Shown here: in pieces, positions 3,861 to 54,347 of the stretch
How the letters are laid out: each line of letters begins with the position of its first letter
How positions within the stretch are numbered: position 1 is the first letter of the stretch
Assembly: GCA_001795455.1 (NCBI GenBank)
Contig: MGPB01000021.1
Span: forward strand, 62,001 to 126,000
DNA: 64,000 nt
Origin: Curvibacter sp. GWA2_63_95
GTDB lineage: Bacteria; Pseudomonadota; Gammaproteobacteria; Burkholderiales; Burkholderiaceae_C
Direction of reading: 5' to 3'
The notes under the pieces: model-generated
Database searches by the model: none
What the model saw: the letters and a program-made list of their open reading frames with translations, nothing else
Told to the model about the DNA's origin: nothing
Made by a program: the position numbers and the translations under genes

Positions 3861-4972
3861 GCGCCAGCGTGGAGCGCGTGGACTGCGTGGTGGTGGGTGC
3901 CGGTGTGGTGGGGCTGGCTGTGGCCCGCGCACTGGCCCAGACTGGGCGTGAGGTGCTGGTGCTGGAGGCCTGCGACGCCTTTGGCACCCAAACCAGTGCA
4001 CGCAACAGCGAGGTCATCCATGCCGGCATTTACTACGCCGCAGGTTCGCTTAAAGCGCAGCTGTGTGTGCGTGGCAAGCAGATGCTGTACGACTACTGCG
4101 CCGAGCGCGGCTTGCCGCACCAGCGCTGCGGCAAGTTCATTGTGGCGACCGATGCTGCGCAGCTTGCGCAGTTGCAGGGTATCCAGGCCAAAGCGGCAGC
4201 CAATGGGGTGCGTGATCTGGTGCTGCTGGACGCGGCCCAGGCCCGTGCCGCCGAGCCGCAGCTGCAGTGCCTGGCCGCTTTGCATTCGCCCTCTACCGGC
4301 ATTGTGGACAGCCATGCGCTCATGCTGTCCCTGTTGGGGGACCTGGAGCGTGCAGGCGGTGTTTTGGCATTAAATTCACCCCTGGTCCGCGCCAGTATTG
4401 CGCAAGAAGCTATTGATTTGATAGCAATGGATGGTACGCAGTTGCGAGCCACAACGGTGGTGAACGCTGCCGGTCTGCAGGCACCGGCCCTGGCCACGCG
4501 TTTTGCCGGGCTGGCGCCGCAGCATGTGCCACAAGCGCATTTTGCCAAGGGCAACTACTTCACGCTGGCCGGGCGCAGCCCGTTCTCACGCCTGATCTAC
4601 CCGGTGCCCGAGGCCGCAGGCCTGGGTGTGCACCTCACCATCGACCTAGGTGGCCAGGCCCGCTTTGGTCCTGATGTGCAGTGGGTGGACGACCCGCAGG
4701 ATCTGGCAGTGGACCCGGCGCGCGGCGATGCCTTTTATGCCGAAGTGCGCAAGTACTGGCCCGCACTGCCCGACGGCGCATTGTTGCCAGCCTACGCCGG
4801 CATGCGCCCCAAGATCCATGGCCCGAGCGCGCCCACCTCGGACTTTGTGATCCAGGGGGCGGCGGTGCATGGGGTGCCGGGGTTGGTGAATTTGTTCGGT
4901 ATTGAGTCGCCGGGTTTGACCAGTGCACTGGCCATTGCCGAACATGTGCTGCACCAGCTGCAAATGCCCTGA
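3857..4972 (+). CDS. FAD-dependent oxidoreductase, L-2-hydroxyglutarate dehydrogenase-like
   Basis: A 371-residue DAO-family flavoprotein. The dinucleotide-binding motif is [16 protein letters not shown] (residues 11-26), followed by the acidic end of beta 2 (VLEACDAFG) and [12 protein letters not shown], typical of L2HGDH/LhgO-like enzymes that oxidise L-2-hydroxy acids and pass electrons to the quinone pool. The C-terminal FAD motif ends in [17 protein letters not shown]. The start is GTG, overlapping the previous stop. A copy of the dispersed palindromic element lies in frame at 4366-4425, encoding [18 protein letters not shown] in a loop before the second FAD-contacting region. The exact substrate is inferred, not proven. 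Confidence 0.82.
4366..4425 (-). repeat. Dispersed palindromic element, copy inside FAD oxidoreductase gene
   Basis: The 17-nt core at 4409-4425 reads GCTATCAAATCAATAGC on the minus strand, followed by TTCTTGCGCAATACTGG. It lies antisense to the host gene, keeps its frame, and adds a peptide of the form S/A-AQ-x-AI-D-x-IA. Confidence 0.85.
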
Positions 4973-4998
4973 TGCCTATTTGGAGAAGGACGCTCTTT

Positions 4999-5862
4999 GT
5001 GAACCTCGTGAAACCCTTTGCCCTGTGTGCCGGCGTGTTGCTCTGTGGCATGGTCTTGACCGGCTGTGCTGCCGCACCTGAAGCCCTGGGCCCGCTGCGC
5101 AAAGAAACCCTGCAGGTATTGACCCAGAAGATGGAGCTGTTGACGGTGAATGCGGGCCAGCCAGGCAAGGTGTTGCAGCGCACCGCCGTGACTGGCCTGC
5201 CCGCGGGCGAGGCCGTGGTCGGCATGGACTACCGCATTGCCAAAGGCGTGCTGTTTGTGTTGAGCAGTGCAGGGCGCCTGTATACGCTGGACGTGCCCAC
5301 GGGGGCGCTCAAACCGGTGGGGAGTGGTACCGGTGTCGCGCTGCGGGGGCAGTGGTTTGGCGTGGACTTCAACCCTGTGGCGGACCGCGTGCGTGTGGTG
5401 GGTAACACGGGCCAAAACATCCGTTTGCACCCCGATACCGGCGCCTTGGCCGCCACCGACCCGGCACCTGCCTATGCTGCAGGCGATGCGCGCGCGGGCA
5501 CTACGCCCGAACTGGTGGCCGCAGGCTACACCTACAACAAGACCGATGAGAAGCTCACCACCAATTACGCCATTGACCGCAACGGTGGCTACCTGGTCAC
5601 CCAGGGTTCGCGCGAGGGCGTGCAGCCCGTGGTGTCCTTCAACACCGGGCTACTGTTCACCGTGGGGGCGCTGGGTATTGCCGACATGGTGGACGCCCAA
5701 ATGGACATTGCCGACGTGACCGGCGCGGCGTTGGTGGCGGTGACGACCAAGTCGCAATCCCCGTCGCGTCTCTACAACCTGGACCTGACCAGCGGCAAAG
5801 CCACGCTGCTGGGCCCGGTGGGCGACGGTAGCCGTGTGATCGGGATGGCGGTAGAGCCCTGA
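4999..5862 (+). CDS. DUF4394-type lipoprotein
   Basis: A predicted lipoprotein of about 287 residues with signal peptide and lipobox VLTGC. The mature part contains repeated beta-strand sequence of the DUF4394 kind: VGMDYRIAKGVLFVLSSAGRLYTLDVPTG, then FNPVADRVRVVGNTGQNIRLHPDTG. This is typical of secreted beta-propeller-like proteins of unknown role. I prefer the GTG at 4999 because GGAGAAGGA lies nine bases upstream; the ATG at 4972, overlapping the previous stop, would add nine residues. It is probably in an operon with the two preceding genes. Confidence 0.75.
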   Translation: MNLVKPFALCAGVLLCGMVLTGCAAAPEALGPLRKETLQVLTQKMELLTVNAGQPGKVLQRTAVTGLPAGEAVVGMDYRIAKGVLFVLSSAGRLYTLDVPTGALKPVGSGTGVALRGQWFGVDFNPVADRVRVVGNTGQNIRLHPDTGALAATDPAPAYAAGDARAGTTPELVAAGYTYNKTDEKLTTNYAIDRNGGYLVTQGSREGVQPVVSFNTGLLFTVGALGIADMVDAQMDIADVTGAALVAVTTKSQSPSRLYNLDLTSGKATLLGPVGDGSRVIGMAVEP

Positions 5863-5864
5863 CT

Positions 5865-5919
5865 GCTATGAAATAAGGAGCTGCTTGCGCAATATCCACG
5901 GGCGCTAGAGCCTTATTTC
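5865..5919 (+). repeat. Dispersed palindromic element between convergent genes
   Basis: The core GCTATGAAATAAGGAGC is at 5865-5881, followed by TGCTTGCGCAATATCCACGG. In this copy GAAATAAGG (5870-5878) and CCTTATTTC (5911-5919) are perfect nine-base inverted arms, so the transcript can form a long hairpin. It begins 3 bases after the DUF4394 gene and its right end overlaps the pyrD stop codon. It may act as a bidirectional terminator. Confidence 0.85.
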
Positions 5920-6992
5920 TTCATATTTTTGATGGCCTGGGCGGCGTCTTTTACCAGTCCGGGGCCTTGGTAGATCAGTCCGGTGTAGATCTGCACCACG
6001 TCGGCTCCCGCGTTGATTTTGCTGACCGCATCGGCCGCGCTCATGATGCCGCCCACGCCGATGATGGGGAAATCCTTGCCCAGCGCCGCACGCAGCTGGC
6101 GAATCACGGCATTGCTCTTCTCCAGCACCGGTGCGCCCGACAGGCCGCCGGTTTCCTCCGCATGCGGCATGCCTTTGACGGCCTCGCGAGACAGCGTGGT
6201 GTTGGTACCAATCACGCCCCAGGCGTTGTTCACCTTGCCGGCGCTGTCCGTGCCGTAGCGTTTGAGCGTGGCGGCAATCACGGCCACTTGGTCGGCTTCC
6301 AGATCGGGGGCGATTTTCAGGAAGATGGGTTTGCGTTGGCCGTGCTTCTGGGCCAGCTGCTCGCGGCGCTCGGCAATCGCGCCCAGCAGCGCGTCCAGCG
6401 CCTCGTCGCTCTGCAGGCTGCGCAGGTTCTTGGTGTTGGGGCTGGAGATGTTGACGGTGATGTAGTCCGCGTGCGGGTAGACACCGTCCAGGCAGATCAG
6501 GTAGTCGTCGGTGGCTTTTTCAATCGGCGTAGCGGCGTTTTTGCCAATATTCAGGCCCAGCAGCAACGACGGGTTTTTGCTCTGGCGCAGCGCGGAGCGC
6601 TGCACATTGGCGATGAAGGCGTCCAGCCCGCCGTTGTTGAAGCCCAAGCGGTTGATGAGTGCATGGGCCGCAGGCAGGCGGAACATGCGCGGCTTGGGGT
6701 TGCCGGGCTGGGCCAGCGGCGTGACCGTGCCGACTTCCACAAAACCAAAGCCCATGGCACCCAGGCCGTCGATGCAGCGCGCGTTCTTGTCCAGGCCGGC
6801 GGCCATGCCCACGCGGTTGGGAAACTTCAGCCCGGCCAGGGTGATGGGGTCGTCTACCCGGCTGTTGCAATAGGCCAGCTTGAGCGGGTTGCCCTGGCTG
6901 GCGGCCAGGCCCGCCATGGTGATGTCGTGGGCGACTTCGGGGTCCAGATTGAACAAAACGCTGCGGGCGAGGGCGTAGGGCACCAGAGACAT
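5913..6992 (-). CDS. pyrD: Dihydroorotate dehydrogenase (quinone), class 2
   Basis: A 359-residue enzyme of pyrimidine synthesis that oxidises dihydroorotate to orotate at the inner membrane with quinone as acceptor. The N-terminal amphipathic helices (residues 1-40) are typical of class 2. FMN and substrate motifs include [36 protein letters not shown] and [12 protein letters not shown], which contains the catalytic Ser. [13 protein letters not shown] and [14 protein letters not shown] bind the FMN phosphate. I chose the ATG at 6992 because it gives the canonical start [14 protein letters not shown]. It is divergent from rpiA with 45 bases between them. Confidence 0.95.
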
Positions 6993-18061: not shown

Positions 18062-18084
18062 GGTGTGTACGGGCTAATTTTTAA

Positions 18085-18150
18085 GCCAAATTGAACTCTA
18101 GCCCGCATGGAATAAGCGCGAGCAGCTATCAAAATAGTAGCTGTTCGCGC
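18085..18150 (-). repeat. Dispersed palindromic element between glyA and nrdR
   Basis: The core is at 18125-18141 and reads GCTACTATTTTGATAGC on the minus strand, followed by TGCTCGCGCTTATTCCATG and GGGCTAGAG. In this copy an extended hairpin also forms: GCGCGAGCAGCTA (18116-18128) and TAGCTGTTCGCGC (18138-18150) pair at 12 of 13 positions. Confidence 0.85.
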
Positions 18151-18162
18151 TTTCCATTGTGC

Positions 18163-19407
18163 TTAGCGGTACACAGGGAAACGTGATGTCAGCGCATGCA
18201 CCTTGGCGCGCACGGCCGCGATGTTGGCCTCGTCGCGTGGGTTGTCCAGCACGTCGGCAATCAGGTTGGCCGTGGCGCGGGCTTCCTCGTCCTTGAAGCC
18301 ACGGGTGGTCATGGCGGGGGTGCCGATGCGCACGCCGCTGGTGACCATAGGCTTCTCGGGGTCGTTGGGGATCGCGTTTTTGTTGATGGTCATGTGGGCG
18401 GCGCCCAGCACAGCCTCGGCTTCCTTGCCGGTAATGCCCTTGGAGCGCAGGTCCACCAGCATCACGTGGCTGTCGGTGCCGCCGCTGACGATGCGCAGGC
18501 CGCGGGCGGTCAGTGTTTCGGCCACGATCTTGGCATTGCGCGCCACTTGCTGCTGGTAAGTCTTGAACTCTGGCGCCATGGCTTCTTTGAACGCAACTGC
18601 TTTGGCGGCAATCACGTGCATCAGCGGGCCGCCTTGCAGGCCAGGGAAGATGGCGCTGTTGATGGCTTTCTCGTGCTCGGCCTTCATCAGGATGATGCCA
18701 CCGCGGGGGCCGCGCAGGCTCTTGTGGGTGGTGGAGGTCACCACGTCGGCGTGGGGCACGGGGTTGGGGTACACACCCGCGGCGATCAAACCTGCGTAGT
18801 GGGCCATGTCCACCATGAAGATGGCCCCGATTTCCTTGGCAATCTTGGCAAAACGTTCAAAGTCGATGGTCAGGGAGTAAGCGGATGCACCGGCAATGAT
18901 CAGTTTGGGCTTGGTCTCGCGCGCCTTGCGCTCCATGGCTTCGTAGTCGATGGCTTCGTTGGCGTCCAGGCCGTAGCTCACCACGTTGAACCATTTGCCG
19001 CTCATGTTCAGGGGCATGCCGTGGGTCAGGTGGCCGCCTTCGGCCAAGCTCATGCCCATGATGGTGTCGCCGGGCTTCAGGAAAGCCAGAAAGACGGCTT
19101 CGTTGGCGGAAGCACCGCAGTGCGGTTGCACGTTGGCAGCCTCAGCACCGAAGATTTGCTTGATACGGTCAATGGCCAATTGTTCGGCCACGTCTACGTG
19201 CTCGCAGCCACCGTAGTAGCGGCGGCCGGGATAGCCTTCGGCGTATTTGTTGGTCAGTTGGCTGCCCTGGGCGGCCATGACGGCGGGGGAGGCGTAATTT
19301 TCGCTGGCAATCAGCTCAATGTGGTGTTCCTGGCGTGCGTTCTCGGCCAGGATGGCAGCCCACAATTCGGGGTCGGCTTGTTCAACAAGGATGTTGCGGT
19401 CGTACAT
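18163..19407 (-). CDS. glyA: Serine hydroxymethyltransferase
   Basis: A 414-residue PLP enzyme that converts serine and tetrahydrofolate to glycine and methylene-tetrahydrofolate, the main source of one-carbon units. Motifs include [26 protein letters not shown] and the PLP lysine in [16 protein letters not shown] chose the ATG at 19407 because it gives the standard start [14 protein letters not shown]. The 5' leader holds a ZTP riboswitch, so expression should rise when ZTP/ZMP accumulates under folate or one-carbon shortage. nrdR follows downstream. Confidence 0.96.
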
Positions 19408-19411: not shown

Positions 19412-19452
19412 GTCCTAAAAGACAAAGGGCCTGTGGGTCTGAAAGACACAGG
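19412..19452 (-). terminator. Expression-platform hairpin of the ZTP riboswitch
   Basis: Downstream of the aptamer on the minus strand, CCTGTG (plus positions 19447-19452) can pair with CACAGG (19430-19435), followed by a U-rich run ending in GTCTTTT just before the glyA start region. This is a plausible ligand-controlled terminator. The same CCTGTG could instead pair with an identical CACAGG at 19536-19541, upstream of the aptamer. Confidence 0.6.
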
Positions 19453-19454
19453 GC

Positions 19455-19535
19455 TGCCCAGGCGAACGGCTGATCGCAAGCCCAAAGAGGCTTGCGGCAC
19501 GCTTCCCAGTGGTGTCCCACGTCAGCGCCAAAGGG
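19455..19535 (-). ncRNA. ZTP (pfl motif) riboswitch upstream of glyA
   Basis: Read on the minus strand, the leader has the conserved parts of the ZTP aptamer in order. GGCGC pairs with GTGCC (P1). GTG-GGACAC-CAC forms P2, followed by CTGGGAAGCG, which matches the conserved GGGGAGCG-type strand. A linker hairpin follows, GCAAGCC with GGCTTGC. The 3' signature is CAGCCGTTCGCCTGGGCA, containing the near-invariant CGCCTGGGCA. Known ZTP riboswitches sense the purine intermediate ZMP/ZTP and often sit upstream of glyA or folD. Ends are approximate. Confidence 0.88.
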
Positions 19536-19594
19536 CCTGTGGGGCCCGGCGCCTATCGCCAGTTGCGTGCAAGCAGGAGTTTAACCGAGCGCGC

Positions 19595-21014: not shown

Positions 21015-21322
21015 ATCTCCTGGGGCCTTGTAGGTGGCATGCCTCTCTATATATATGTATGCATCCCTGCGTCTGGGCGCTCGCACGCGGAAGGACCACC
21101 ACCGCCCGACGACGTGGGGGTACTAAATTGCTATCAATAATGGAGCTACTTGCGCAGTATCCATGGGCATTTGGGGGTGTTATGCATGTAAATTTGCATG
21201 GCAAGGGTGATGTCTGCCGGGCCCACTGTGTGGACTTGCTGCAAAAAACGGAGGGAGCATGGCATTTCGAGGCGAAAATACCCGGCTGTATTTTTGTTTA
21301 CCAACCCTGATTGCTACCCACT
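21015..21322. other. Gene-free region upstream of the DUF349 gene
   Basis: This stretch holds one palindromic element copy (21130-21171) and an alternating TATATATATGTATGCAT tract near 21048-21063. GGAGGGAG-C-ATG at 21250-21261 opens a 66-codon frame that overlaps the DUF349 start in another frame. I see no clear sigma-70 promoter and no other gene. Confidence 0.55.
21130..21171 (+). repeat. Dispersed palindromic element, intergenic copy
   Basis: Core GCTATCAATAATGGAGC at 21130-21146, followed by TACTTGCGCAGTATCCATGG. This copy is close to the consensus of both core and right flank. Confidence 0.85.
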
Positions 21323-24037
21323 GTGACCTCGTCCAACTCCGCCAAACACCTCGACATTGCCCAACTGGACAGCCTGACCGGCGGTGCATTCTCCGCTGCA
21401 ACCGCTGGCGACCGGGCTTCCCGCATCCGGGAGTGGCTGCAGGGCAACCCCAGCGCTGATCTGCTGGCCGAGGTGTTTCGGGAACTCAGCGTCAAAGACA
21501 AGGGCGCTGCCAAGCTGGTGCGTGAGCGCCTGGACGAAGCCAAGCGGGCCAAAGGGCAAGAGCTGTTGGCCGCCGAGTGGGCTGCCCGTGCACAGGCGCT
21601 CATCGACACCGCCAAACTGAACATTGCCGACGCCCTGGCCTGGCAGCGCGATGCGGCCAAGGCCGGCGCACCGCTGAGCAAAGAACCACTGAGCACCCTC
21701 AAGACCCAGCTAGCAGAGCGGGTGCGGGGCATTGAAGACCTGCAGCACCAGGTGCAGGTGCAGCGCGAAGCGGCCGTGCTGTTGGCGCAGCGCATTGAAG
21801 TGCTGTCCACCAAGTCCTGGGGCGATGCCCAAGCTGCGCTGGACGCCCTGCGGACCGACGTGGAGCATTGGCAAACCCAGGCCACCGCACTGGTGGCGCA
21901 TGCCAGCTGGGTCAGTGTGGACCTGAAGTTTCCGCCGCTGCTGGACGCGTCACGTGGCCAGTTGTTGGTGGTGTGGGATGCGTTCCAGGCGGCCTTGAAC
22001 CTGGCGGTGGTCGCCGCGGCCGATGCCAGCGCACCGTTGCCACCTGTGCCCGTGTGGGCAGACGAGTTGCGTACCGCGCGTGGCGTACCTGTCGAGGCGC
22101 CGGCCAAGCAGGCCAAACCCAAGATTGACCCCGAAGTGCGCGCCCAGGCGGCGACGGCCGTGCGTGCAGCCCTGACCACACTGGAGCAGGAAGTGGCAGA
22201 AGGCCACGGCAAGGCCAGCACCGGTGCCGCCAATGCATTGCGCAATGCGCTCAAGGAGTTTGGCAAAGTTATTGACGGCAAGCTCGAAAACCAGGCCCAC
22301 GCGGCTCTGGCGGCGGCGGGTGAGCTCGAAGGCTGGCAACGCTGGCGTGCCGACCAGATCCGCGAGGAGCTGGTGACCAAGGCGGAGGGCTTGCTCAAAC
22401 GGCCCGAAGGTCAGGCCATTGGCGGCCGCAAGATGCAGGAAACCCTGCGGACCTTGCGCGACCAGTGGAAACAAACCGACCAAGGCGGTGTGCCCAACCA
22501 CGCGCTGTGGAAACGTTTTGACGAAGCCTGCAACGAGGCTTACAAAGTGGTTGAAGGCTGGCTGGAGAAGGTCAAGGCCGAATCTGCCGAGCACAAAGCC
22601 CAGCGCCTGGCGCTGATTGCCGAGGTCGACGCCTGGGCGCTAGCCAACCGCACCGCGCTGGACGATGACTGGAAAGGCTTCAACCGCATCCTGCACCAGT
22701 TCGGCGACCGCTGGCGCGAAGGTGGTCACGTGGGCGAAAAAGTGTTTGCCGAACTGCAACCGCTGTGGAAAGCCGCCATTGCCAACGCCGCTGCCCCGCT
22801 GGAAGCGCTGCAGGCCCAAAGCCTGGCTGCCCGCCACGCCATGATTGAAGAAGCCAAGGTGTTGGGCGCCGCCCCCGTGCTGCGCATCGATGCCGTCAAG
22901 GCGCTACAACAGCGCTGGCAAGTGCAGGCCCACGCGGTGCCGATTGATCGTCGGCAAGAGCAAAAGCTGTGGGATGCCTTCCGCAAACCGATTGACGATG
23001 CCTTCAACCGCAAGACTGTAGAGCGTGAAAAAGCCGAAACCGCTCTGGGCGCGCGTGACCGCGTGGTGCTGGATGCGGCCAAGGCCCTTGAAGCTGCCAA
23101 TGCCTCGGGCGATGCCCAGGCTATTCGTGCTGCCATGGCCGCGCTGGAAGCTGCTTTGCAAGGCCAGGCCCAAGCGCAAGCTGAGGTGACGGCTGCGGGC
23201 GTACAAGAGCAAGCCGCCCAGTCTGCCGCCGCAGAGGCATCAAATATGCCTCTAGCCCCCGAGGAGTCTGCGCAAGCAGCTCCTGATTTGATAGCAAATT
23301 CCGACGAGGCGGCCGCCGTGGCTGACGAAGCCAGTGCGCCGCAAGCCCCGGTGGTGCCCGCCAAGGCTGCGCCTAAACCCGTGGTGGCCGTGCGTGGTGA
23401 CGACCGCCCCGGCATGAAGAAAGAAGCGCCCGCCGCTCCCGGTGGCCGTGGTGGCAAATTTGGCGACCGCAAGGATGCTGGTGCGGGGCGCGGTGGCCGG
23501 GATGGTGCTGCCGCTCCCTGGGGTGACCGGGGTCCGCGCCGTGATGACCGCGGTGATCGCAGCTACGCGCCCGCTGCGCCGCGTTTGGGCGATACCGCCT
23601 TCCGCGCCCAGCGTGACGCGCTGGAGCACGCCCAACTGGCGCTCAAAAAGCTGGCTGCCCAGGCCCATGGCGAGGCGCTGACCCAGCTGCTGACAGCGTG
23701 GGAAAAACGCGACGCCAGCCTGCTGCCTCCTGCACAAGAGCTGGGTAGCCGTGCTGCGGCCCAAAACCGCCCTGTGTGGGTGAAGGCCGTGGAGGGTGCG
23801 GCCAAGCCGGCCGCGGTGCAGTCTCTGCTGCGCCTGGAGATGGCGGCAGAAGTGCCCACGCCGGCTGAGCATCTGGATGCCCGTCGTGGCCTGCAGTTGC
23901 AGTTGCTTACACGTCGCAACGATCCGGCCCCGGCCCAGACTTGGGGCCAGGATGCCGCAGCAGTGTTATCCGGTGAGTTCAACGCGGCGGATGCACGCCG
24001 TTTGCAAACCGTGCTCAAGGTCTTGCTCAAGCGATAA
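21323..24037 (+). CDS. DUF349 family protein
   Basis: A protein of about 904 residues made of repeated helical DUF349 units, each with a W and a basic/acidic helix pair, such as LRDQWKQTDQGG, FNRILHQFGDRWREGG and LQQRWQVQAHAVP. Residues about 690-760 form a low-complexity Ala/Gly/Arg-rich linker (GGRGGKFGDRKDAGAGRGG) before a C-terminal helical domain. The function is not known; the family is cytosolic. Start choice is unsure: GTG at 21323 or TTG at 21311, neither with a ribosome site, while a strong site serves an ATG at 21259 in another frame. An element copy lies in frame at 23238-23295, inside a variable linker. Confidence 0.82.
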   Translation: MTSSNSAKHLDIAQLDSLTGGAFSAATAGDRASRIREWLQGNPSADLLAEVFRELSVKDKGAAKLVRERLDEAKRAKGQELLAAEWAARAQALIDTAKLNIADALAWQRDAAKAGAPLSKEPLSTLKTQLAERVRGIEDLQHQVQVQREAAVLLAQRIEVLSTKSWGDAQAALDALRTDVEHWQTQATALVAHASWVSVDLKFPPLLDASRGQLLVVWDAFQAALNLAVVAAADASAPLPPVPVWADELRTARGVPVEAPAKQAKPKIDPEVRAQAATAVRAALTTLEQEVAEGHGKASTGAANALRNALKEFGKVIDGKLENQAHAALAAAGELEGWQRWRADQIREELVTKAEGLLKRPEGQAIGGRKMQETLRTLRDQWKQTDQGGVPNHALWKRFDEACNEAYKVVEGWLEKVKAESAEHKAQRLALIAEVDAWALANRTALDDDWKGFNRILHQFGDRWREGGHVGEKVFAELQPLWKAAIANAAAPLEALQAQSLAARHAMIEEAKVLGAAPVLRIDAVKALQQRWQVQAHAVPIDRRQEQKLWDAFRKPIDDAFNRKTVEREKAETALGARDRVVLDAAKALEAANASGDAQAIRAAMAALEAALQGQAQAQAEVTAAGVQEQAAQSAAAEASNMPLAPEESAQAAPDLIANSDEAAAVADEASAPQAPVVPAKAAPKPVVAVRGDDRPGMKKEAPAAPGGRGGKFGDRKDAGAGRGGRDGAAAPWGDRGPRRDDRGDRSYAPAAPRLGDTAFRAQRDALEHAQLALKKLAAQAHGEALTQLLTAWEKRDASLLPPAQELGSRAAAQNRPVWVKAVEGAAKPAAVQSLLRLEMAAEVPTPAEHLDARRGLQLQLLTRRNDPAPAQTWGQDAAAVLSGEFNAADARRLQTVLKVLLKR
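23238..23295 (-). repeat. Dispersed palindromic element, copy inside DUF349 gene
   Basis: Core at 23279-23295, GCTATCAAATCAGGAGC on the minus strand, followed by TGCTTGCGCAGACTCCTCGG and GGGCTAGAGG. It is antisense to the gene and adds PLAPEESAQAAPDLIAN in the alanine-rich linker. Confidence 0.85.
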
Positions 24038-26543: not shown

Positions 26544-27050
26544 TTACAGCGCGACGGCTTTTTCAATGACCACGTCTTCCTTGGGCACGTCGTCATGGAA
26601 GCCCTTGCGGCCAGTCTTCACAGCCTTGATCTTGTCGACCACGTCGGTGCCAGACACCACTTTGCCAAACACGGCGTAGCCCCAGCCTTGGGTGGAGGGG
26701 GCGGTGTGGTTCAGGAAACCGTTATCGGCCACGTTGATGAAGAACTGGGCGGTAGCGGAGTGCGGATCGCCGGTACGTGCCATGGCAACGGTGTACACAG
26801 CGTTCTTGAGGCCGTTGTTGGCCTCGTTTTCAATGGGAGCATCGGTCGACTTTTGGCCCATGCCGGGTTCCATGCCGCCGCCTTGCACCATGAAGCCGGG
26901 GATGACACGGTGGAAGATGGTGCCGTTGTAGTGGCCCTTGTTCACGTAGGCCAGGAAGTTGGCCGTGGACTTGGGGGCTTTGTCTGCATCCAGTTCCAGC
27001 GTGATGACGCCGTAGCCGGTGATGTGGAGTTCGACTTGGGGATTGCTCAT
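26544..27050 (-). CDS. ppiB: Peptidyl-prolyl cis-trans isomerase B (cytosolic cyclophilin)
   Basis: A 168-residue cyclophilin that catalyses proline isomerisation during folding. There is no signal peptide, so it acts in the cytosol. Active-site motifs are [14 protein letters not shown] (with the catalytic Arg), [18 protein letters not shown], and the Trp position in [11 protein letters not shown]. It starts three bases after the exported cyclophilin gene, so the two are a tandem pair, probably from an old duplication. Confidence 0.94.
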
Positions 27051-27053
27051 GGT

Positions 27054-27734
27054 TTATTTCGCCACTGTGGCGGAGTTGATGGTGATGGGGGTTTGCGGAA
27101 CGTCGCTGCGGAAAGGACCACCAGCGCCGGTGGGGGTGGACTTGATCTTGGTGATCACATCCATGCCGCTGATGACCTTGCCGAACACGGTGTAGCCAAA
27201 CAGCTGCGGTGAATTCAAGAGTGCCGCACGCGGCGTGTCCTTGTAGACCTGGCCTTGGTATTCAAAGCGCGGCACTGGGTCACCCGGTGGGATCAGCACC
27301 GGGTCTAGGAAGGCATTGTCCTGCACATTGATGAAGAACTGGGCGGTGGCCGACTGCGGATCGTTGGTGCGTGCCATGGCAAGGGTACCCACCGTGTTGC
27401 GTGGACCACCACGGCTCAGGGCTTCCCGACCTTCATGCGCCACAGGGGGGCGCGTTAGCTTTTCGGCGTATTTGCCATCAAAGCCGCCACCCTGCACCAT
27501 GAAATTGGGAATGACACGGTGAAAAATCGTGCCGTTGTAGTGCTTGTCTTTGACGTACTGGAGGAAGTTTTCCACCGTCTTCGGGGCTTTGTCCGGGTAC
27601 AGCTCCACGGTGAAGTCGCCCGCACTGGTCTGGAATTTCACCAGGGGATTTTGTGCCGCGGCCATACAGCTCAGCAATGCCAGCGCACATGCCAACCAGA
27701 GCTTGCGCAGTGGCTTCACCGTCAAGGTACGCAT
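27054..27734 (-). CDS. ppiA: Peptidyl-prolyl cis-trans isomerase A (exported cyclophilin)
   Basis: A 226-residue cyclophilin with a signal peptide (residues 1-27, ending SCMAAAQ), so it is periplasmic. The active-site sequence [14 protein letters not shown] and [18 protein letters not shown] are intact. Compared with ppiB it has an insertion of about 20 residues ([21 protein letters not shown]). I chose the ATG at 27734 because it overlaps the stop of the L,D-transpeptidase gene (TAATG); longer starts lie inside that gene. The context suggests folding of envelope proteins. Confidence 0.92.
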
Positions 27735-33404: not shown

Positions 33405-34391
33405 ATGACCCAGTCACTGGATGCGGCCCTGCGGGCTTTTCAGCCCGCTTTGCCTTTGGGGGTGGCGTTCAGCGGTGGGGCGGACTCCACTGCCTTGCTG
33501 ATTGCCTGTGCCGAGCGCTGGCCGGGGCAGGTGGTCGCCCTGCATGTGAACCACGGTCTCCAGGCGGCTGCGGTCGACTTTGAAACCTTCTGCATCGACC
33601 TGTGCGCCACGCTAGGCGTGCCCCTGCGGGTGTTGAAAGTGGAGGCTGGGCACGCACCCGGCCAAAGCCCCGAAGAGGCCGCCCGAGTTGCACGTTACAA
33701 GGCTTTTAGTGCTCTAGCCCGCATGGATTCTGCGCAAGTAGCTATTAAATCAATAGCGATTGCACAACACGCTGATGACCAAGTGGAGACCCTGCTACTG
33801 GCACTGAGCCGTGGCGCAGGCTTGCGCGGCCTGAGCGCCATGCCTGCGCAGTGGCAACGTGATGGCTTGGACTTTTATCGGCCCCTGTTGGGTGTGTCTG
33901 CGTCGGACATTCGGGTATGGCTGGCCGAACGTGGAAGCGCCTTTGTAGAAGACCCTAGCAATACCGACCAGCGCTTTACCCGCAACCGCATACGTGCCCA
34001 ACTGCTGCCGGTCCTGGATGCCGTGTTTCCCCAGTTTCGTGACACATTGGCCCGCAGTGTCGCCCATGCTGCCCAAGCACAAGGGTTGCTGGACGAAATG
34101 GCTGCCGCCGATTTGCAGGTGGTATGTCGTTCGGACGATGGGCTGCCCACCATCCAGGGCCTGCAAACCTTGGCCGCAGCGCGTCAGGCGAATGTCTTGC
34201 GCCATTGGTTCGCCAAAGCTCACCGGGTGATTCCGAGTGCGGCCCAACTCGCCGAACTGCAGCACCAGATTGCGGCCTGCACCACGCGGGGGCACCGTAT
34301 CCACCTCAAGCTGGCACAGGGATTTGTGGAGCGCAAGGGGGCGGTGCTGGTTTGGGCCCGGTCCGTAGATCAGGTTCCGCGAGCAGTTTGA
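33405..34391 (+). CDS. tilS: tRNA(Ile)-lysidine synthetase
   Basis: A 328-residue enzyme that attaches lysine to C34 of the minor tRNA-Ile so that it reads AUA. The PP-loop is AFSGGADSTALL (residues 21-32); VNHGLQ and the ADDQVETLLLALSRGAGLRGL region complete the N-type ATP pyrophosphatase fold. It is short, lacking the C-terminal domain of E. coli TilS, as is common in betaproteobacteria. An element copy sits in frame at 33703-33757 and encodes ALARMDSAQVAIKSIAIA just before QHADDQVET. The protein still keeps all catalytic motifs. The stop overlaps the -35 box of tRNA-Ser. Confidence 0.93.
   Translation: MTQSLDAALRAFQPALPLGVAFSGGADSTALLIACAERWPGQVVALHVNHGLQAAAVDFETFCIDLCATLGVPLRVLKVEAGHAPGQSPEEAARVARYKAFSALARMDSAQVAIKSIAIAQHADDQVETLLLALSRGAGLRGLSAMPAQWQRDGLDFYRPLLGVSASDIRVWLAERGSAFVEDPSNTDQRFTRNRIRAQLLPVLDAVFPQFRDTLARSVAHAAQAQGLLDEMAAADLQVVCRSDDGLPTIQGLQTLAAARQANVLRHWFAKAHRVIPSAAQLAELQHQIAACTTRGHRIHLKLAQGFVERKGAVLVWARSVDQVPRAV
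33703..33757 (-). repeat. Dispersed palindromic element, copy inside tilS
   Basis: Core at 33741-33757, GCTATTGATTTAATAGC on the minus strand, with six perfect arm pairs and a five-base loop. It is followed by TACTTGCGCAGAATCCATG and GGGCTAGAGC. Antisense to the gene and in frame. Confidence 0.88.
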
Positions 34392-34435: not shown

Positions 34436-34528
34436 GGAGACGTGACCGAGTGGCCGAAGGTGCTCCCCTGCTAAGGGAGTATGGGGTGTAGAGCCTCATC
34501 GAGGGTTCGAATCCCTCCGTCTCCGCCA
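34436..34528 (+). tRNA. tRNA-Ser (anticodon GCT)
   Basis: Class II tRNA with a long variable arm. Acceptor GGAGACG (34436-34442) pairs with CGTCTCC (34518-34524), then G and CCA. The anticodon stem CTCCC/GGGAG encloses CTGCTAA with anticodon GCT at 34470-34472, which reads AGC and AGT serine codons. The T arm GAGGGTTCGAATCCCTC is complete. Confidence 0.96.
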
Positions 34529-45368: not shown

Positions 45369-47036
45369 ATGGCATTGGTAGAAGTAAAAGTCCCGGATAT
45401 CGGTGACTTCGACGAAGTCGCGGTGATCGAGCTGCTGGTCAAGGTGGGCGATACCGTGAAGGTGGAGCAGAGCCTGATTACCGTGGAGTCTGACAAGGCC
45501 TCCATGGAGATTCCCTCCAGCACCGCCGGTGTGGTCAAGGAAATCAAGGTCGCCCTGGGCGACAAGGTCAAGCAAGGCTCCGTGGTCGTGATGGTGGAAG
45601 CTGCGGGTGCTGCTGCAGCGCCTGCTGCAGAGCCAAAAGCGGCTCCAGCGCCCGCCACAGCTGCGCCAGCAGCTCCTGTTTCTGTAGCGCCTGCATCCGT
45701 TGCCGCCCCTGCTGCTGCCGGTCCGGTGGACGTGTTTGTGCCTGACATCGGCGACTTCAAGGACGTGGCCGTCATCGAACTGCTGGTCAAGGTGGGCGAC
45801 ACCGTGAAGGTGGAGCAGAGCCTGATCACCGTGGAGTCTGACAAGGCCTCCATGGAGATTCCTTCCAGCACCGCCGGTGTGGTCAAGGAAATCAAGGTCA
45901 AGCTGGGTGACACCGTGAACATTGGTGATCTGGTGGTCGTGCTGGAAGGTGTGGCGGGTGCCGCACCAGCGCCTGCAGCCGTTGCTGCCGTCGCCGCACC
46001 TGCTGCTGCGCCCGTTGCAGCAGCGGCCCCGGCAGCCGCCGCCGCAGCAGCACCCGCCGCTTTGGCTGTGCCTGCGCATGCGCCCGGTGGCACCACGCTT
46101 GGCTTGCCCCATGCATCACCTTCCGTGCGCAAGTTCGCCCGCGAACTGGGCGTACCTTTGAACGAAGTCAAGGGTTCCGGCCTCAAGGGCCGTATCACCG
46201 AGGCGGACGTGCAAGGCTTCACCCGTTCCGTGATGAGCGGTGCGGTGCAAACGCTGGCCATTGCGGCGCAAGCCAAGGCATCCGGCAGCAATGACGGCGC
46301 CGGTCTGGGCCTGATCCCCTGGCCCAAGGTGGACTTTGCCAAGTTCGGTCCGATCGAGCGCAAGGAAATGTCCCGCATCAAGAAGATCAGCGGTGCCAAC
46401 CTGCTGCGCAATGCGGTCATGATTCCCGCCGTCACCAACCATGACGACGCCGACATCACCGACCTCGAAGCCTTCCGCGTCTCTACCAACAAAGAGAACG
46501 AGAAGAGTGGCATCAAGGTCACCATGCTGGCCTTCCTGATCAAGGCCTGCGTGGCTGCGCTCAAGAAGTTCCCCGAGTTCAACAGCTCGCTGGACGGCGA
46601 TGCGCTGATCTACAAGCAGTACTACCACATCGGTTTTGCGGCCGACACGCCCAACGGCTTGGTGGTGCCCGTGATCAAGGACGCCGACAAGAAGGGCATC
46701 TTCCAGATCAGCCAGGAAATGGGTGAGCTGGCCAAGAAGGCCCGCGACGGCAAGCTCGGCCCTGCCGACATGAGCGGCGCGACCTTCACCATCTCTTCAT
46801 TGGGTGGTATCGGTGGCCGTTACTTCACGCCCATCATCAACGCCCCTGAAGTCGCCATCCTCGGCGTCTGCAAGAGCCAGATGGAACCCGTGTGGGACGG
46901 CAAAGCCTTCCAGCCACGCCTGATGCTGCCCTTGTCGCTGACCTGGGACCACCGCGTGATCGACGGCGCCGCCGCGGCGCGCTTCAACGTGTACCTGGGC
47001 CAGATCCTGGGTGACTTCCGCCGCGTGCTGCTCTGA
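45369..47036 (+). CDS. aceF: Pyruvate dehydrogenase E2 (dihydrolipoamide acetyltransferase)
   Basis: A 555-residue core subunit. Two lipoyl domains start at residues 1 and about 118, each with ESDKASMEIPSS and the lipoyl lysine at K43 and about K159. An alanine/proline linker follows, then a peripheral-subunit-binding domain (SPSVRKFARELGVPLNEVKGSG) and the catalytic domain with DHRVIDGAAAARF, including the catalytic His, near the end. I chose the ATG at 45369, which has CCGGAG upstream. The two lipoyl segments are almost identical in DNA over more than 100 bases, and the linker resembles that of lpd, pointing to duplication or gene conversion. Confidence 0.96.
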   Translation: MALVEVKVPDIGDFDEVAVIELLVKVGDTVKVEQSLITVESDKASMEIPSSTAGVVKEIKVALGDKVKQGSVVVMVEAAGAAAAPAAEPKAAPAPATAAPAAPVSVAPASVAAPAAAGPVDVFVPDIGDFKDVAVIELLVKVGDTVKVEQSLITVESDKASMEIPSSTAGVVKEIKVKLGDTVNIGDLVVVLEGVAGAAPAPAAVAAVAAPAAAPVAAAAPAAAAAAAPAALAVPAHAPGGTTLGLPHASPSVRKFARELGVPLNEVKGSGLKGRITEADVQGFTRSVMSGAVQTLAIAAQAKASGSNDGAGLGLIPWPKVDFAKFGPIERKEMSRIKKISGANLLRNAVMIPAVTNHDDADITDLEAFRVSTNKENEKSGIKVTMLAFLIKACVAALKKFPEFNSSLDGDALIYKQYYHIGFAADTPNGLVVPVIKDADKKGIFQISQEMGELAKKARDGKLGPADMSGATFTISSLGGIGGRYFTPIINAPEVAILGVCKSQMEPVWDGKAFQPRLMLPLSLTWDHRVIDGAAAARFNVYLGQILGDFRRVLL

Positions 47037-47047
47037 GGAACTGATAT

Positions 47048-48889
47048 ATGGCAATCGTAGAAATCAAGGTTCCGGATATCGGCGACCTGGACGAAGTCGC
47101 GGTCATCGAACTGCTGGTCAAGGTGGGTGACACCATCAAGCCCGAGCAAAGCCTGATCACCGTGGAGTCTGACAAAGCCTCCATGGAAATCCCCGCCAGC
47201 GAAGGCGGCGTGGTGACAGAGCTCAAGGTCAAACTGGGCGACAAGGTCAAGCAGGGCACCGTGGTGGTATTGCTGGATGCTGCTGGTGCTGCTGCAGCTC
47301 CCGTTTCAGAACCCAAATCGGCTCCAGCCACCGCAGTTGCTGCGCCAGCAGCTCCTGTTTCTGTAGCAGCTGCACCGGTCCCAACGGCATCCAGCTTTGG
47401 CGGCAGCGCCGATCTGGAGTGCGACGTGCTCGTCATCGGTGGCGGCCCCGGGGGCTACAGCGCAGCCTTCCGCGCAGCGGACCTGGGCCTCAAGGTCATC
47501 GTGGTGGAACGCTATGCCACCCTGGGCGGTGTGTGCCTGAACGTGGGTTGCATCCCCTCCAAAGCTTTGCTGCACGTCGCCGCGGTGATGGACGAGGTGA
47601 GCCACATGGCCGACTTGGGCGTGGACTTTGGTGCGCCCACGTTGAACATCGACAAGCTGCGCGGCCACAAGGAAAAAGTCATCGGCAAGCTCACCGGCGG
47701 TCTGGCCGCCATGGCCAAGATGCGCAAGGTGACCACTGTGCGCGGCTACGGTGCCTTTGTGGGCGCCAACCATGTCGAGGTGGAAGAAACCACCGGCACC
47801 GGCCAGGAGAAGACGGGTACCAAAAAAGTCATCGCCTTCAAGAAGGCCATCATCGCCGCGGGCAGCCAGGCCGTGCGCCTGCCCTTCATGCCCAACGATC
47901 CACGCGTCGTGGACTCCACCGGCGCCCTGGCGCTCAAAGAAGTGCCCAAGCGCATGCTGATCCTGGGTGGCGGCATCATCGGCCTGGAAATGGGCACCGT
48001 TTACAGCACCCTGGGCGCCCGCCTGGACGTGGTGGAAATGATGGATGGCCTGATGCAAGGCGCTGACCGCGACTTGGTCAAGATCTGGCAGAAGATGAAC
48101 GCCAAGCGCTTCGACAACATCATGCTCAAGACCAAGACCGTGTCCGCACGCGCCTTGCCTGAAGGCATTGAAGTGACGTTTGCACCCGCGGAAGAGGGCG
48201 GCACTGCCCCCGCGCCGCAGGTGTACGACTTGGTGCTGCAAGCCGTGGGCCGCACGCCCAACGGCAAGAAGATCAGCGCCGACAAGGCCGGTGTGGCCGT
48301 CACCGACCGTGGCTTCATCAACGTCGACATCCAGATGCGCACCAACGTGCCGCACATCTTCGCCATCGGCGACATCGTGGGCCAGCCCATGCTGGCGCAC
48401 AAGGCGGTGCACGAAGCGCACGTGGCGGCTGAAGTGATTGCCGGTGAACTGCAAGGCAACAAGGAACTGGCTGCTGCTGCGTTCAACGCACGCGTCATCC
48501 CATCCGTGGCCTATACCGACCCCGAAGTGGCATGGGTCGGCCTCACCGAAGACCAGGCCAAGGCCCAAGGCATCAAGGTCAAGAAGGGCTTGTTCCCTTG
48601 GACCGCCTCCGGCCGCGCGATTGCCAATGGCCGCGACGAAGGGGTTACCAAACTCCTGTTTGATGACAGTCCTGAGGCGCACGGCCACGGTAAGATCCTG
48701 GGCGGCGGCATGGTCGGCACCCACGCCGGCGACATGATCGGCGAGATTGCCTTGGCGATTGAAATGGGCGCAGACGCTGTGGACATCGGCAAGACCATCC
48801 ACCCGCACCCCACGCTGGGCGAAAGCATTGGCATGGCAGCGGAGATTGCGCATGGCAGCTGCACGGATGTGCCGCCGCAGAAGAAGTAA
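47048..48889 (+). CDS. lpdA: Dihydrolipoamide dehydrogenase E3 with N-terminal lipoyl domain
   Basis: A 613-residue flavoprotein, about 120 residues longer than a plain E3. Residues 1-80 are a lipoyl domain (ESDKASMEIPAS, lipoyl lysine K43), joined by an Ala/Pro linker to the E3 part. The FAD motif is VLVIGGGPGGYSAA. The redox disulfide is C163-C168 in GGVCLNVGCIPSK. The NAD motif is MLILGGGIIGLEMG. The base is the His in KTIHPHPTLGE. It re-oxidises the lipoyl groups of AceF. This lipoyl-E3 fusion is typical of betaproteobacteria. A strong terminator follows. The last codons (DVPPQKK) have a diverged copy at 51487-51511. Confidence 0.96.
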   Translation: MAIVEIKVPDIGDLDEVAVIELLVKVGDTIKPEQSLITVESDKASMEIPASEGGVVTELKVKLGDKVKQGTVVVLLDAAGAAAAPVSEPKSAPATAVAAPAAPVSVAAAPVPTASSFGGSADLECDVLVIGGGPGGYSAAFRAADLGLKVIVVERYATLGGVCLNVGCIPSKALLHVAAVMDEVSHMADLGVDFGAPTLNIDKLRGHKEKVIGKLTGGLAAMAKMRKVTTVRGYGAFVGANHVEVEETTGTGQEKTGTKKVIAFKKAIIAAGSQAVRLPFMPNDPRVVDSTGALALKEVPKRMLILGGGIIGLEMGTVYSTLGARLDVVEMMDGLMQGADRDLVKIWQKMNAKRFDNIMLKTKTVSARALPEGIEVTFAPAEEGGTAPAPQVYDLVLQAVGRTPNGKKISADKAGVAVTDRGFINVDIQMRTNVPHIFAIGDIVGQPMLAHKAVHEAHVAAEVIAGELQGNKELAAAAFNARVIPSVAYTDPEVAWVGLTEDQAKAQGIKVKKGLFPWTASGRAIANGRDEGVTKLLFDDSPEAHGHGKILGGGMVGTHAGDMIGEIALAIEMGADAVDIGKTIHPHPTLGESIGMAAEIAHGSCTDVPPQKK

Positions 48890-48907
48890 GCGGCCTCAGC
48901 GGTCTCA

Positions 48908-51488: not shown

Positions 51489-51511
51489 TATGCCGCAGCA
51501 GCAGAAGTAAG
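51487..51511 (+). repeat. Diverged copy of the lpd 3' end
   Basis: Twenty-two of 25 bases match the last codons of lpd (48866-48890). Read in frame it gives D-M-P-Q-Q-Q-K-stop, against D-V-P-P-Q-K-K-stop in lpd. It overlaps the stop codon of the GGDEF-EAL gene and encodes nothing on its own. Confidence 0.7.
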
Positions 51512-51531
51512 TCCGAATGGCTGCTGAAATT

Positions 51532-51586
51532 GCTATAAATTCAGTAGCTATCCACGCATATTTTGTAAGGGCTGTAGCGCTTTTTT
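51532..51586 (+). repeat. Dispersed palindromic element, intergenic copy
   Basis: Core GCTATAAATTCAGTAGC at 51532-51548, followed by TATCCACGCATATTTTG and GGGCTGTAGCGC. The TTGCGCA part of the flank is deleted or rearranged. It lies 21 bases after the lpd-tail scar. Confidence 0.8.
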
Positions 51587-51616
51587 ACTTACATTCGCCA
51601 GGGCGCATAATGGCCA

Positions 51617-52675: not shown

Positions 52676-52700
52676 GCCCTTGTCGCCAGGAAAAAGCATC

Positions 52701-52756
52701 CCCTCCAAAGTGAGGGAAAATAGCGGGTTTTCTGCTGCCGTCAACGCCAGCAGAAA
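52701..52756 (+). promoter_or_regulatory. Hairpins in the aspartate kinase leader
   Basis: CCCTC/GAGGG (52701-52705 and 52712-52716) and TTTCTGCTG/CAGCAGAAA (52729-52737 and 52748-52756) form stable stems. A competing GAAAA/TTTTC pairing (52716-52720 with 52728-52732) overlaps both. Regulation of the downstream gene is possible but untested; it is not a lysine riboswitch. Confidence 0.35.
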
Positions 52757-52800
52757 CGCTCGCCCCGCTCTACAACCTTTTTGCCCTTCCCAGCTTGTCC

Positions 52801-54222
52801 ATGCAAGACGTCAATTCCTCCAAGATCTCTGTCGAAAAGATCGGCGGCACCTCCATGACCGCCTTTGGTGATGTGCTGCGCCACATCGTGCTGCACGACC
52901 CCAAACGTATCTACGGTCGCATTTACGTGGTATCGGCCTATTCGGGTGTGACCAACCAGTTGCTGGAGCACAAGAAAACCGGCGAGCGCGGCATTTACGC
53001 CTTGTTTGCCGAGGGCAAGGGTTACCAGGACGCGCTGACCGAATTGGCAGCCAGCCTCAAAAAGCTCAATGCCGGGTATGCCGATATCGGCTTGCCGCTG
53101 GCTGTGGCCGATGCCTTCATTGACCAGCGCATTGCCCAGGCCCGCGAATACCTGGGCGCCATGCAGCATGTGCTGGCCAGCGGCTACCTGAGCCGCAAGG
53201 ATGTGTTGTTGGCCGCACGTGAGGTGCTGGCCTCGATTGGCGAGTCGCACAGCGCATTCAACTCGGTGGAAATCATCAAGGCCAATGGCGTGAATGCCGT
53301 GCTGATGGACTTGGCCGGCTTTGACGACAACGAGGCCTGGACGATTGACGAGCGTATTGCCAACAGTTTCAAGGACCTGGACCTGGTGAACAGCGTGATC
53401 GTGGCCACCGGCTACACCAAGGGCACCGAAGGCATCATGCGCGAGTTCGACCGTGGCTACTCCGAGGTCACCTTCAGCAAGATCGCCGTGGAAGTGCGCC
53501 CGGCCGAAGCCGTGATCCACAAGGAATTCCACCTCTCGTCCGCCGACCCCAACCTCGTGGGCCTGGAAAACGCTATTGTGGTCGGTGCCACCAACTACGA
53601 CGTGGCCGACCAGTTGGCCGACGTGGGCATGGAAGCGATCCACCCCAAGGCCGCCAAGCCCATGGAGCTGGCCGGCATCCCCATTCGCCTGAAAAACACC
53701 TTCGAGCCGGACCACCCTGGCACGCTGATCACCAAAGATTTTGTGGGCGAGCGCGCGCGCGTGGAGATCGTGACCGGCACCGACAAAGTGACCTTGATCG
53801 AGATCCACGACCCCAGCATGGTGGGAACGGTGGGCTTTGATGCCAGCCTGATGCAGGTGTTCTGCAAACACGACATCAGCTACATCCTCAAAGCCACCAA
53901 TGCCAACTCCATCGCCCATCTGGTGTGGGACAACCAGGTCACGGCTGAACTCGTGGCCGAACTCGAAACCTTGTACCAGGTGGTGACGGTCAAGCCCAGC
54001 GCCATCGTCTGCACCATCGGCTCCAACATCGGCATCCCCGGTGTGTTGGCCAAGGCCGCGCAGGCGCTGGCCGACGCGGGGGTCAACGTCAACTGCGTGT
54101 CGCAGACCTTGCGCCAGGTGAACATGCAGTTTGTGATCGAGCGTGCCGACTACAAAACCGCCATCAAGGCGCTCAACATGGCGTTGTGCGTCAACTCCGG
54201 CACGCCGGTGCCACGCGGCTGA
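52801..54222 (+). CDS. Aspartate kinase, ectoine-type (Ask_Ect-like)
   Basis: A 473-residue aspartokinase that phosphorylates aspartate. The N-terminal kinase motif is VEKIGGTSMTAFGDV, the variant of KxGGTS seen in Ask_Ect enzymes, instead of the KFGGTSV or KYGGTSM of housekeeping LysC. FDRGYSEVTFSKIA carries the kinase loop. The C-terminal part has ACT domains (VTLIEIHDPSMVGTVGFDASLMQVF; TIGSNIGIPGVLAKAAQALADAGVNV) for feedback control. No ectABC genes are near, so it may simply be an additional kinase of the aspartate family pathway. I chose the ATG at 52801 over a TTG two codons earlier. Confidence 0.87.
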   Translation: MQDVNSSKISVEKIGGTSMTAFGDVLRHIVLHDPKRIYGRIYVVSAYSGVTNQLLEHKKTGERGIYALFAEGKGYQDALTELAASLKKLNAGYADIGLPLAVADAFIDQRIAQAREYLGAMQHVLASGYLSRKDVLLAAREVLASIGESHSAFNSVEIIKANGVNAVLMDLAGFDDNEAWTIDERIANSFKDLDLVNSVIVATGYTKGTEGIMREFDRGYSEVTFSKIAVEVRPAEAVIHKEFHLSSADPNLVGLENAIVVGATNYDVADQLADVGMEAIHPKAAKPMELAGIPIRLKNTFEPDHPGTLITKDFVGERARVEIVTGTDKVTLIEIHDPSMVGTVGFDASLMQVFCKHDISYILKATNANSIAHLVWDNQVTAELVAELETLYQVVTVKPSAIVCTIGSNIGIPGVLAKAAQALADAGVNVNCVSQTLRQVNMQFVIERADYKTAIKALNMALCVNSGTPVPRG

Positions 54223-54287
54223 TCGCGGAGGATGCAGGCAGGCCCTGGGCACGGGCCATGCGCCTGCGCTTGGGGGTACTGCAAGAT

Positions 54288-54347
54288 GCTCCTGAAATAG
54301 GAGCTGCTCGCGCAGTATCCATAAGGGTTAGGTGCCTATTTGGCTTG
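54288..54347 (+). repeat. Dispersed palindromic element after aspartate kinase
   Basis: Core GCTCCTGAAATAGGAGC at 54288-54304 has six perfect arm pairs. The flank is TGCTCGCGCAGTATCCAT. As in the copy at 5865, AAATAGG (54295-54301) recurs inverted as CCTATTT about 34 bases later, followed by a T-run, so it may help end the kinase transcript. Confidence 0.85.

What the first reader, a model, noticed from the sequence alone, without database searches (positions are those of the whole stretch)
4366..54347. A dispersed palindromic element with an exact 17-nt core, ten copies in 64 kb
Ten sites share a core of the form GCT-N11-AGC, always 17 nt, such as GCTATTGATTTAATAGC. Cores are at 4409, 5865, 8811, 18125, 21130, 23279, 33741, 39277, 51532 and 54288. 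Most are followed by a flank like TGCTTGCGCAGTATCCATG and then GGGCTAGAG. The arms vary but co-vary (AT...AT, CC...GG), so pairing is selected or copied as a unit. Copies occur in both orientations, about one per 6 kb, with no transposase nearby. This looks like a small non-autonomous mobile or REP-like family. I know of no named family with this sequence.
Basis: seen in the sequence. Interest (0 to 1): 0.85.

Follow-up and report, generated by a model that had tools for sequence, protein, structure and literature searches.

The report
Dispersed 72-nt repeat of Comamonadaceae genomes
The genome is sprinkled with hundreds of old, related 72-letter DNA repeats that sit between and even inside genes and stay recognisable over long evolutionary times, but we do not yet know what copies or reads them.

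Summary
The repeat is real and larger than reported. It is a gapless unit of about 72 nt: an AT-rich 17-nt core GCT-N11-AGC, then an arm like TGCTTGCGCAnnATCCACGGGGGCTAGAGGCC. A strict pattern occurs 367 times in the 3.88-Mb genome against 2 control hits; a profile gives about one copy per 6 kb in the 224 kb examined. Eight of the ten reported sites are clear, two are weak, two were missed. The claimed co-variation of the core arms fails. The family occurs across Comamonadaceae, with hundreds of matches in some species and control level in others, in genus "dialects". Of 17 sites that could be anchored in a congener, 15 have an element there, and consensus columns are better conserved than the rest. 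About a third of copies lie in genes, in preferred frames; in several enzymes they hardly change protein length. The one Y1 (RAYT-like) gene looks like a class described as lacking REPs and is rarely flanked by the element. I read it as an old REP-like repeat family, now resident and maintained in sequence, not a demonstrated active mobile element.

The parts
4359..4428 (-). element copy inside a FAD-dependent oxidoreductase gene (3857-4972), in frame
   Evidence: profile 44.4 bits; gene named
5862..5923 (+). element copy directly after a stop codon; also present at the orthologous place in G217
   Evidence: 57.2 bits
8764..8828 (-). weak or degenerate copy (reported core 8811)
   Evidence: 10.1 bits, E 0.08
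18074..18142 (-). element copy between nrdR and the gene at 18163-19407; no element found at this place in G125 and G217
   Evidence: 51.5 bits; spacer +82/+85 nt
18125..18151 (+). second, inverted arm sharing the core of the copy at 18074-18142 (double-armed form)
   Evidence: 18.0 bits; hairpin z -4.84
21125..21196 (+). intergenic element copy upstream of the DUF349 gene
   Evidence: 39.7 bits; element in the homologous interval of G217 and G125
23236..23300 (-). element copy inside the DUF349 gene (21323-24037), in frame
   Evidence: 64.6 bits; DUF349
33694..33763 (-). element copy inside tilS (33405-34391), in frame; same site in other genera
   Evidence: 54.5 bits
39268..39293 (-). reported core 39277: core plus a short CTTGCGC remnant only, unconfirmed
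   Evidence: seen; no profile hit at E<=1
   Evidence: 33.3 bits
   Evidence: 38.3 bits
51526..51599 (+). intergenic element copy
   Evidence: 37.5 bits
54283..54355 (+). intergenic element copy; an element also follows the orthologous gene in G217
   Evidence: 52.9 bits

Best explanation
An old, family-wide, non-autonomous REP-like repeat. The symmetric ancestral form was probably two inverted GC-rich arms around an AT-rich spacer; most copies now keep one full arm plus the spacer. Copies were spread long ago by an unidentified copying activity, possibly a single-strand processing enzyme of the REP/RAYT sort. In this genus they now largely sit still, are inherited vertically, and keep their consensus. 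I infer that something sequence-specific still acts on them: either a host factor that reads the element (purifying selection with genus dialects) or exchange between copies. Shown: copy number, unit length, sites shared with a congener, better conservation of consensus columns, dialects, in-frame intragenic copies. Inferred: ancestral double-armed form, past copying activity, the maintaining agent.
For: High copy and fixed spacing: the 38 training copies align without a gap (in one search I used 37, because L028 is a shorter locus and my coordinates for it were wrong). Total information is about 60 bits (36 copies). The short core rarely occurs outside full elements (GCTGCTNGCGCA: 19 of 20 inside), which fits descent by copying. 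Sites: of 36 copies in 224 kb, 17 could be anchored on both flanks in G217; 15 have an element in the homologous interval (two of them at only 13-14 bits, one in the opposite orientation), two have none. Flank-to-flank spacing is identical at 8 of the 17, one of which (dusA) has no element in G217. In 18 distinct own/G217 pairs, consensus columns are 0.89 identical against 0.63 for low-information columns (Wilcoxon 1e-4). Double-armed copies exist and one folds far better than shuffles. At own 50648 the congener carries an arm on the other side of a core at nearly the same place (read by eye), as expected if single-armed copies come from double-armed ones. Likely insertions: nrdR-glyA +82/+85 nt; tilS of G113, 36 codons where outgroups have 18, with a 19.2-bit element inside.
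Against: The arm palindrome, a hallmark of REPs, is largely lost in this genome's dialect. No enzyme is tied to the element: Y1 homologs are found in 283 of 299 genomes, including many at control level for the repeat; none at E<=0.001 in G270, which has 76 strict matches; and 1 of 30 Y1 loci has a clear flanking copy. In several enzymes the intragenic copy adds few or no residues, which simple insertion does not predict. In the 8 anchored, equal-spacing sites chosen without using the congener's profile score, the conservation contrast is weaker (0.82 vs 0.72, p=0.098), with dusA as the one reversal.
Confidence: 0.55

Rival explanations
1. A genuine REP/REPIN family moved by the resident Y1 (RAYT) transposase.
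For: One Y1_Tnp gene in the genome, with a degenerate element copy just after its stop codon; REP-like layout near gene ends and double-armed forms; hairpin arms in other genera, GCGCTTG..CAAGCGC.
Against: The motifs NHFH, WE, YIDLNP and the length of 232 aa fit subclass 2.1 best (my assignment by motif, no tree), which PMC6006769 describes as lacking REPs. 1 of 30 Y1 loci is clearly flanked, though these 30 were picked by similarity to the own protein and some come from repeat-poor genomes. Gene present without repeats, and repeats without gene. Heads are GGAG 17, ATAG 13, GTAG 6, GAAG 2 of 38, not consistently GT[AG]G.
Confidence: 0.15
2. A long sequence signal read by a co-evolving host protein (uptake-signal-like or chromosome-organising), which accumulates in place and shows dialects like the DNA uptake sequences of Neisseriaceae.
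For: Dialect at the tilS copy matches the genome dialect in 14 of 15 genomes where both could be called A or T (Fisher p=0.002, no phylogenetic correction; thresholds mine). Nearly length-neutral intragenic copies. Maintained consensus columns. Codon-level signal not explained by the protein.
Against: About 60 bits is far more than needed to mark 500-600 sites, and the short core is rare outside elements. Only one copy per 6 kb. Competence genes and binding were not examined.
Confidence: 0.2
3. Neutral fossils: an old burst of insertions now simply decaying.
For: The 36 copies compared are highly diverged (median 57% identity) and 15 of 17 anchored sites have an element in a congener.
Against: Unequal conservation of columns within the same orthologous copies and genus-specific shifts at shared sites are not expected from neutral decay.
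Confidence: 0.1

Closest known systems
REP / REPIN / BIME elements (Nunvar 2010 PMC2817692; Di Nocera 2013 PMC3733652; Bertels and Rainey 2011 PMC3116915, seen in listing only)
   Same: Short, hundreds of copies, both strands, often near gene 3' ends, some inside genes, sometimes paired in inverted orientation.
   Different: No consistent GT[AG]G head, arm stem largely lost in this dialect, no cognate flanked RAYT found, about a third intragenic (13 of 36), old diverged copies.
Rickettsia palindromic elements (RPE; known here from passages on them in PMC3733652 and from recall)
   Same: In-frame copies inside conserved protein genes.
   Different: Several copies here leave protein length almost unchanged; unit about 72 nt; Comamonadaceae.
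BRE, Beta-proteobacterial repeat element (Hot 2011, PMC3110155, section 14 read)
   Same: Short repeat reported in Bordetella and Comamonadaceae, some copies inside genes.
   Different: BRE averages 69% GC in Bordetella, often in tandem, 4 copies in Rhodoferax ferrireducens; this unit averages 48% GC, is dispersed, hundreds of copies. The BRE letters could not be compared (figure and supplement not held).
DNA uptake sequences of Neisseriaceae (dialects; PMC3630211, start of abstract in the listing only)
   Same: Genus dialects, copies in genes, both orientations.
   Different: DUS are about 10-12 nt and much denser (recalled); here a 72-nt unit at one per 6 kb.

Membership tests
REP (GTAG superfamily) | GT[AG]G head at the foot of the palindrome | tested here: not met
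   own heads GGAG 17, ATAG 13, GTAG 6, GAAG 2 of 38
REP (GTAG superfamily) | imperfect palindrome / stem-loop in the unit | tested here: inconclusive
   7-bp stem in the G015 and G120 consensus, only GCGC/GCGC left in G217, broken in own and G125; no covariation between copies in any of the five genomes
REP (GTAG superfamily) | more than 100 dispersed copies per genome | tested here: met
   367 strict matches, control 2
REP/RAYT system | rayt gene flanked by the cognate repeat | tested here: not met
   1 of 30 Y1 loci has a clear copy, on one side only and degenerate; 2 more have about 13 bits
REP/RAYT system | repeat abundance follows presence of the gene | tested here: not met
   homologs in 283 of 299 genomes whatever the repeat count; 76 repeats in G270 without a hit
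REPIN | two inverted units forming a hairpin | tested here: inconclusive
   true of a minority: 7 double-armed sites in own at <=3 mismatches; the one folded forms a strong hairpin
RPE-like intragenic element | in-frame presence inside conserved genes | tested here: met
   15 of 39 hits in predicted genes; 10 of 11 antisense ones in one phase, 4 of 4 sense ones in one phase; 0.15 expected from synonymous shuffles
RPE-like intragenic element | extra residues inserted relative to homologs | tested here: inconclusive
   about -3 to +5 aa in TilS, MurI, the FAD oxidoreductase, methylmalonyl-CoA mutase, DusA; about +15 aa over the whole enoyl-CoA hydratase match; +18 aa in G113 TilS
MITE | terminal inverted repeats with target-site duplication | not tested
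   no search for TIRs or target-site duplications was run; the candidate empty site (18074-18142) was only aligned, where the ends are not resolved
DNA uptake sequence | short core over-represented independent of a longer unit | tested here: not met
   GCTGCTNGCGCA: 19 of 20 in 224 kb lie in full elements
DNA uptake sequence | bias in DNA uptake | not testable with these tools
   needs a transformation assay
BRE | sequence identity to the published BRE | not testable with these tools
   BRE letters not held; GC, copy number and tandem arrangement differ

The most novel reading that the evidence does not exclude
A genome-wide 72-nt sequence signal that overwrites native sequence, coding sequence included, without adding length, and whose hundreds of fixed copies shift together into genus dialects because a co-evolving host protein reads them.
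Probability: 0.17. Interest if true: 0.88.

Novelty: new variant of a known kind. Interest (0 to 1): 0.6.

Why it matters
Repeats of this kind are usually seen as selfish insertions that come and go. Here copies stay at the same places in a congener, keep their consensus, follow the dialect of their genome, and lie inside core enzymes such as TilS and MurI with little effect on length. That makes it possible to test directly whether short bacterial repeats are maintained by selection or by exchange between copies. It also warns that protein segments in Comamonadaceae enzymes may be shaped by DNA-level constraint: the tilS copy uses ATA, which is 2.7% of Ile codons in the predicted genes of the 224 kb.

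Tried and rejected
Core-arm covariation: rejected. Stem covariation in the right arm: no excess within any of five genomes (a first attempt used wrong columns and is void). Rfam at gathering threshold: no family at the element sites. RNA consensus folding of 38 copies: almost nothing. RAYT as partner: weak. First idea that tilS copies are plain insertions: not simple, net +12 nt against outgroups although the element covers about 57 nt. dusA copy (25.9 bits): lies on a normal DusA peptide, possibly chance, though no synonymous shuffle reached 25 bits. In my notes I called the gene at 21323-24037 'rne'; it is a DUF349 protein. Literature on RAYT in Comamonadaceae: word matches irrelevant. Model counts are capped at 150 scored candidates per genome and were not used as totals. 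Unread: tilS of G014, G032 and G009.
Full report
What is there. All ten 17-nt cores exist at the given places. Oriented by their flank, the copies form one gapless unit of about 72 nt: aTTTGCTATnnATTTAGKAGC, then TGCTTGCGCAnnnTCCACGnGGGCTAGAGGCCnATTTG. A strict pattern (core plus TRCTTGCGC, at most one mismatch) has 182 forward and 185 reverse matches in the 3.88-Mb genome, control 2 and 0. A profile finds 39 hits at E<=0.01 in 224 kb around and including the window, one of them the second arm of a copy already counted, and none in the reversed sequence at E<=1. 36 score 20 bits or more, which scales to about 490-620 in the genome.

Structure. The core arms do not complement each other more than shuffled ones; the invariant GCT and AGC say nothing. 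In the right arm, the G015 and G120 consensus has a 7-bp stem GCGCTTG..CAAGCGC, G217 keeps GCGC/GCGC, and own and G125 have lost most of it; no genome shows excess covariation between copies. A minority of copies carries the arm on both sides of the core: 7 sites in the own genome at up to 3 mismatches (control 0), 3 in G217; in GC-richer genomes some of the matches are plainly chance. The copy at 18074-18151 is of this kind and folds as a long hairpin, z -4.84. At own position 50648 (outside the window) G217 has a core at nearly the same place with the arm on the other side (by eye). I infer that the symmetric form is ancestral.

Distribution. In 299 genomes of the GTDB family, strict matches range from control level to over 400 (G015 434, G035 438, own 343), and vary within genera: G217 283, G125 72, G287 12 in the own genus. 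Many genomes are at the level of their reversed control, so the tally '294 of 299 have a match' is not a count of carriers.

Age and maintenance. Among the 36 copies in 224 kb the closest pair is 81% identical and the median 57% over 68 nt, so these show no recent burst; the rest of the genome was not compared. Of the 36, 17 could be anchored on both flanks in the G217 stretches fetched: 15 have an element in the homologous interval (two at only 13-14 bits, one in the opposite orientation), two do not. Spacing between flanks is identical at 8 of the 17, including dusA, where G217 has no element. In 18 distinct own/G217 pairs, columns of at least 1 bit are 0.89 identical and columns below 0.4 bit 0.63; all 18 pairs show this direction, nine genic and nine not. 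Pairs were found with the profile in both genomes, which favours conserved copies; in the 8 equal-spacing sites chosen by flanks alone the contrast is 0.82 to 0.72 (p=0.098), seven of eight in the same direction and dusA reversed (0.38 to 0.83).

Dialects. Most own and G217 copies read GCGCA, most G125 copies GCTGTCTGCGCA, and G015 and G120 copies GCGCTTG. Counts of AGCTGCTNGCGCA against AGCTGCTNGCGCT separate genomes: own 301:15, G217 248:20, G136 41:335, G015 64:493, others mixed, for example G121 70:69. The tilS copy sits at the same codons in several genera. Where genome dialect and tilS letter could both be called A or T, they agree in 14 of 15 (A 5 of 6, T 9 of 9); three more called genomes have C or G there, nine had no clear dialect, four lack the 22-codon form. 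The thresholds were mine, G125 was scored although its main dialect is not counted by these patterns, and relatedness was not corrected.

Inside genes. Of 39 hits, 15 overlap predicted genes by 30 nt or more. Ten of 11 antisense copies use one phase (peptide like LAPxxxAQAAPxxIA) and 4 of 4 sense copies another. Synonymous-codon shuffles give 0.15 hits at 14 bits or more, against 15 observed, of which some were in the training set; so the match is at the DNA level. Gene calls are from my own simple predictor. Genes include a FAD oxidoreductase, a DUF349 protein, tilS, E2 and E3 of pyruvate dehydrogenase, murI, an enoyl-CoA hydratase-like gene, malonyl-CoA decarboxylase, dusA and methylmalonyl-CoA mutase (the oxidoreductase and hydratase names are below NCBIfam cut-offs). 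Against solved homologs the FAD oxidoreductase is 3 residues shorter at the element than its best match, and MurI about 3 longer. TilS has 22 codons between two anchors in 27 of 31 readable genomes, including some without a recognisable element (such as G132 and G044), against 18 in outgroup sequences, most of them read by eye. Yet G113 TilS has 36, with a 19.2-bit element inside, and the nrdR-glyA spacer is 82-85 nt longer in this genome than in G125 and G217. So there are likely insertions, but several genic copies are nearly length-neutral; insertion followed by trimming and in-place replacement both remain open.

Mobiliser. One Y1_Tnp gene exists in the genome, with a degenerate copy after its stop. 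Homologs occur in 283 of 299 genomes. Of the 30 loci retrieved, chosen by similarity and partly from repeat-poor genomes, 1 has a clear copy and 2 have about 13 bits. G270 has 76 strict matches and no hit at E<=0.001. Its motifs fit subclass 2.1 of PMC6006769 best (my reading of its Table 1; sections 17 and 20 read), described as without REP-like sequences nearby. The gene names nrdR, glyA and gltB are my reading of sequence and context, not a database result.

Verdict. An old, REP-like, non-autonomous repeat family that is resident and sequence-maintained in this genus. The agent that copied it and the one that maintains it are unknown. Paper searches found no description. Seen of the papers: PMC2817692, part 1 of 5 of the text and a term search; PMC3733652, abstract, section 15 and a term search; PMC6006769, sections 17 and 20 and passages; PMC3110155, section 14, abstract and passages; PMC8049555, passages only.

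Noticed in passing
window 19449-19576 (-): ZMP/ZTP riboswitch (Rfam RF01750, 50.7 bits) upstream of the 414-aa gene at 18163-19407 (-), probably glyA.
   Followed up: no
window 45369-47347: A 300-nt segment with three copies (73-81% identity): repeated lipoyl domains in E2, and one at the N terminus of dihydrolipoyl dehydrogenase.
   Followed up: partly
L165 2074-2140, L148 2079-2142, L149 2089-2116: A second element-like site further downstream in tilS in three other genomes, in the other orientation.
   Followed up: no
L031 / L061: A single-copy Y1 (RAYT-like) gene next to what looks like gltB; homologs in 283 of 299 family genomes, which suggests a retained function unrelated to this repeat.
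   Followed up: partly
window 26708-27620: Neighbouring paralogous repeats of 143 and 97 nt, 73-77% identical, probably a gene duplication.
   Followed up: no
window 1416-1487 and 34436-34525 (+): Two tRNA genes; the second lies just downstream of tilS.
   Followed up: no
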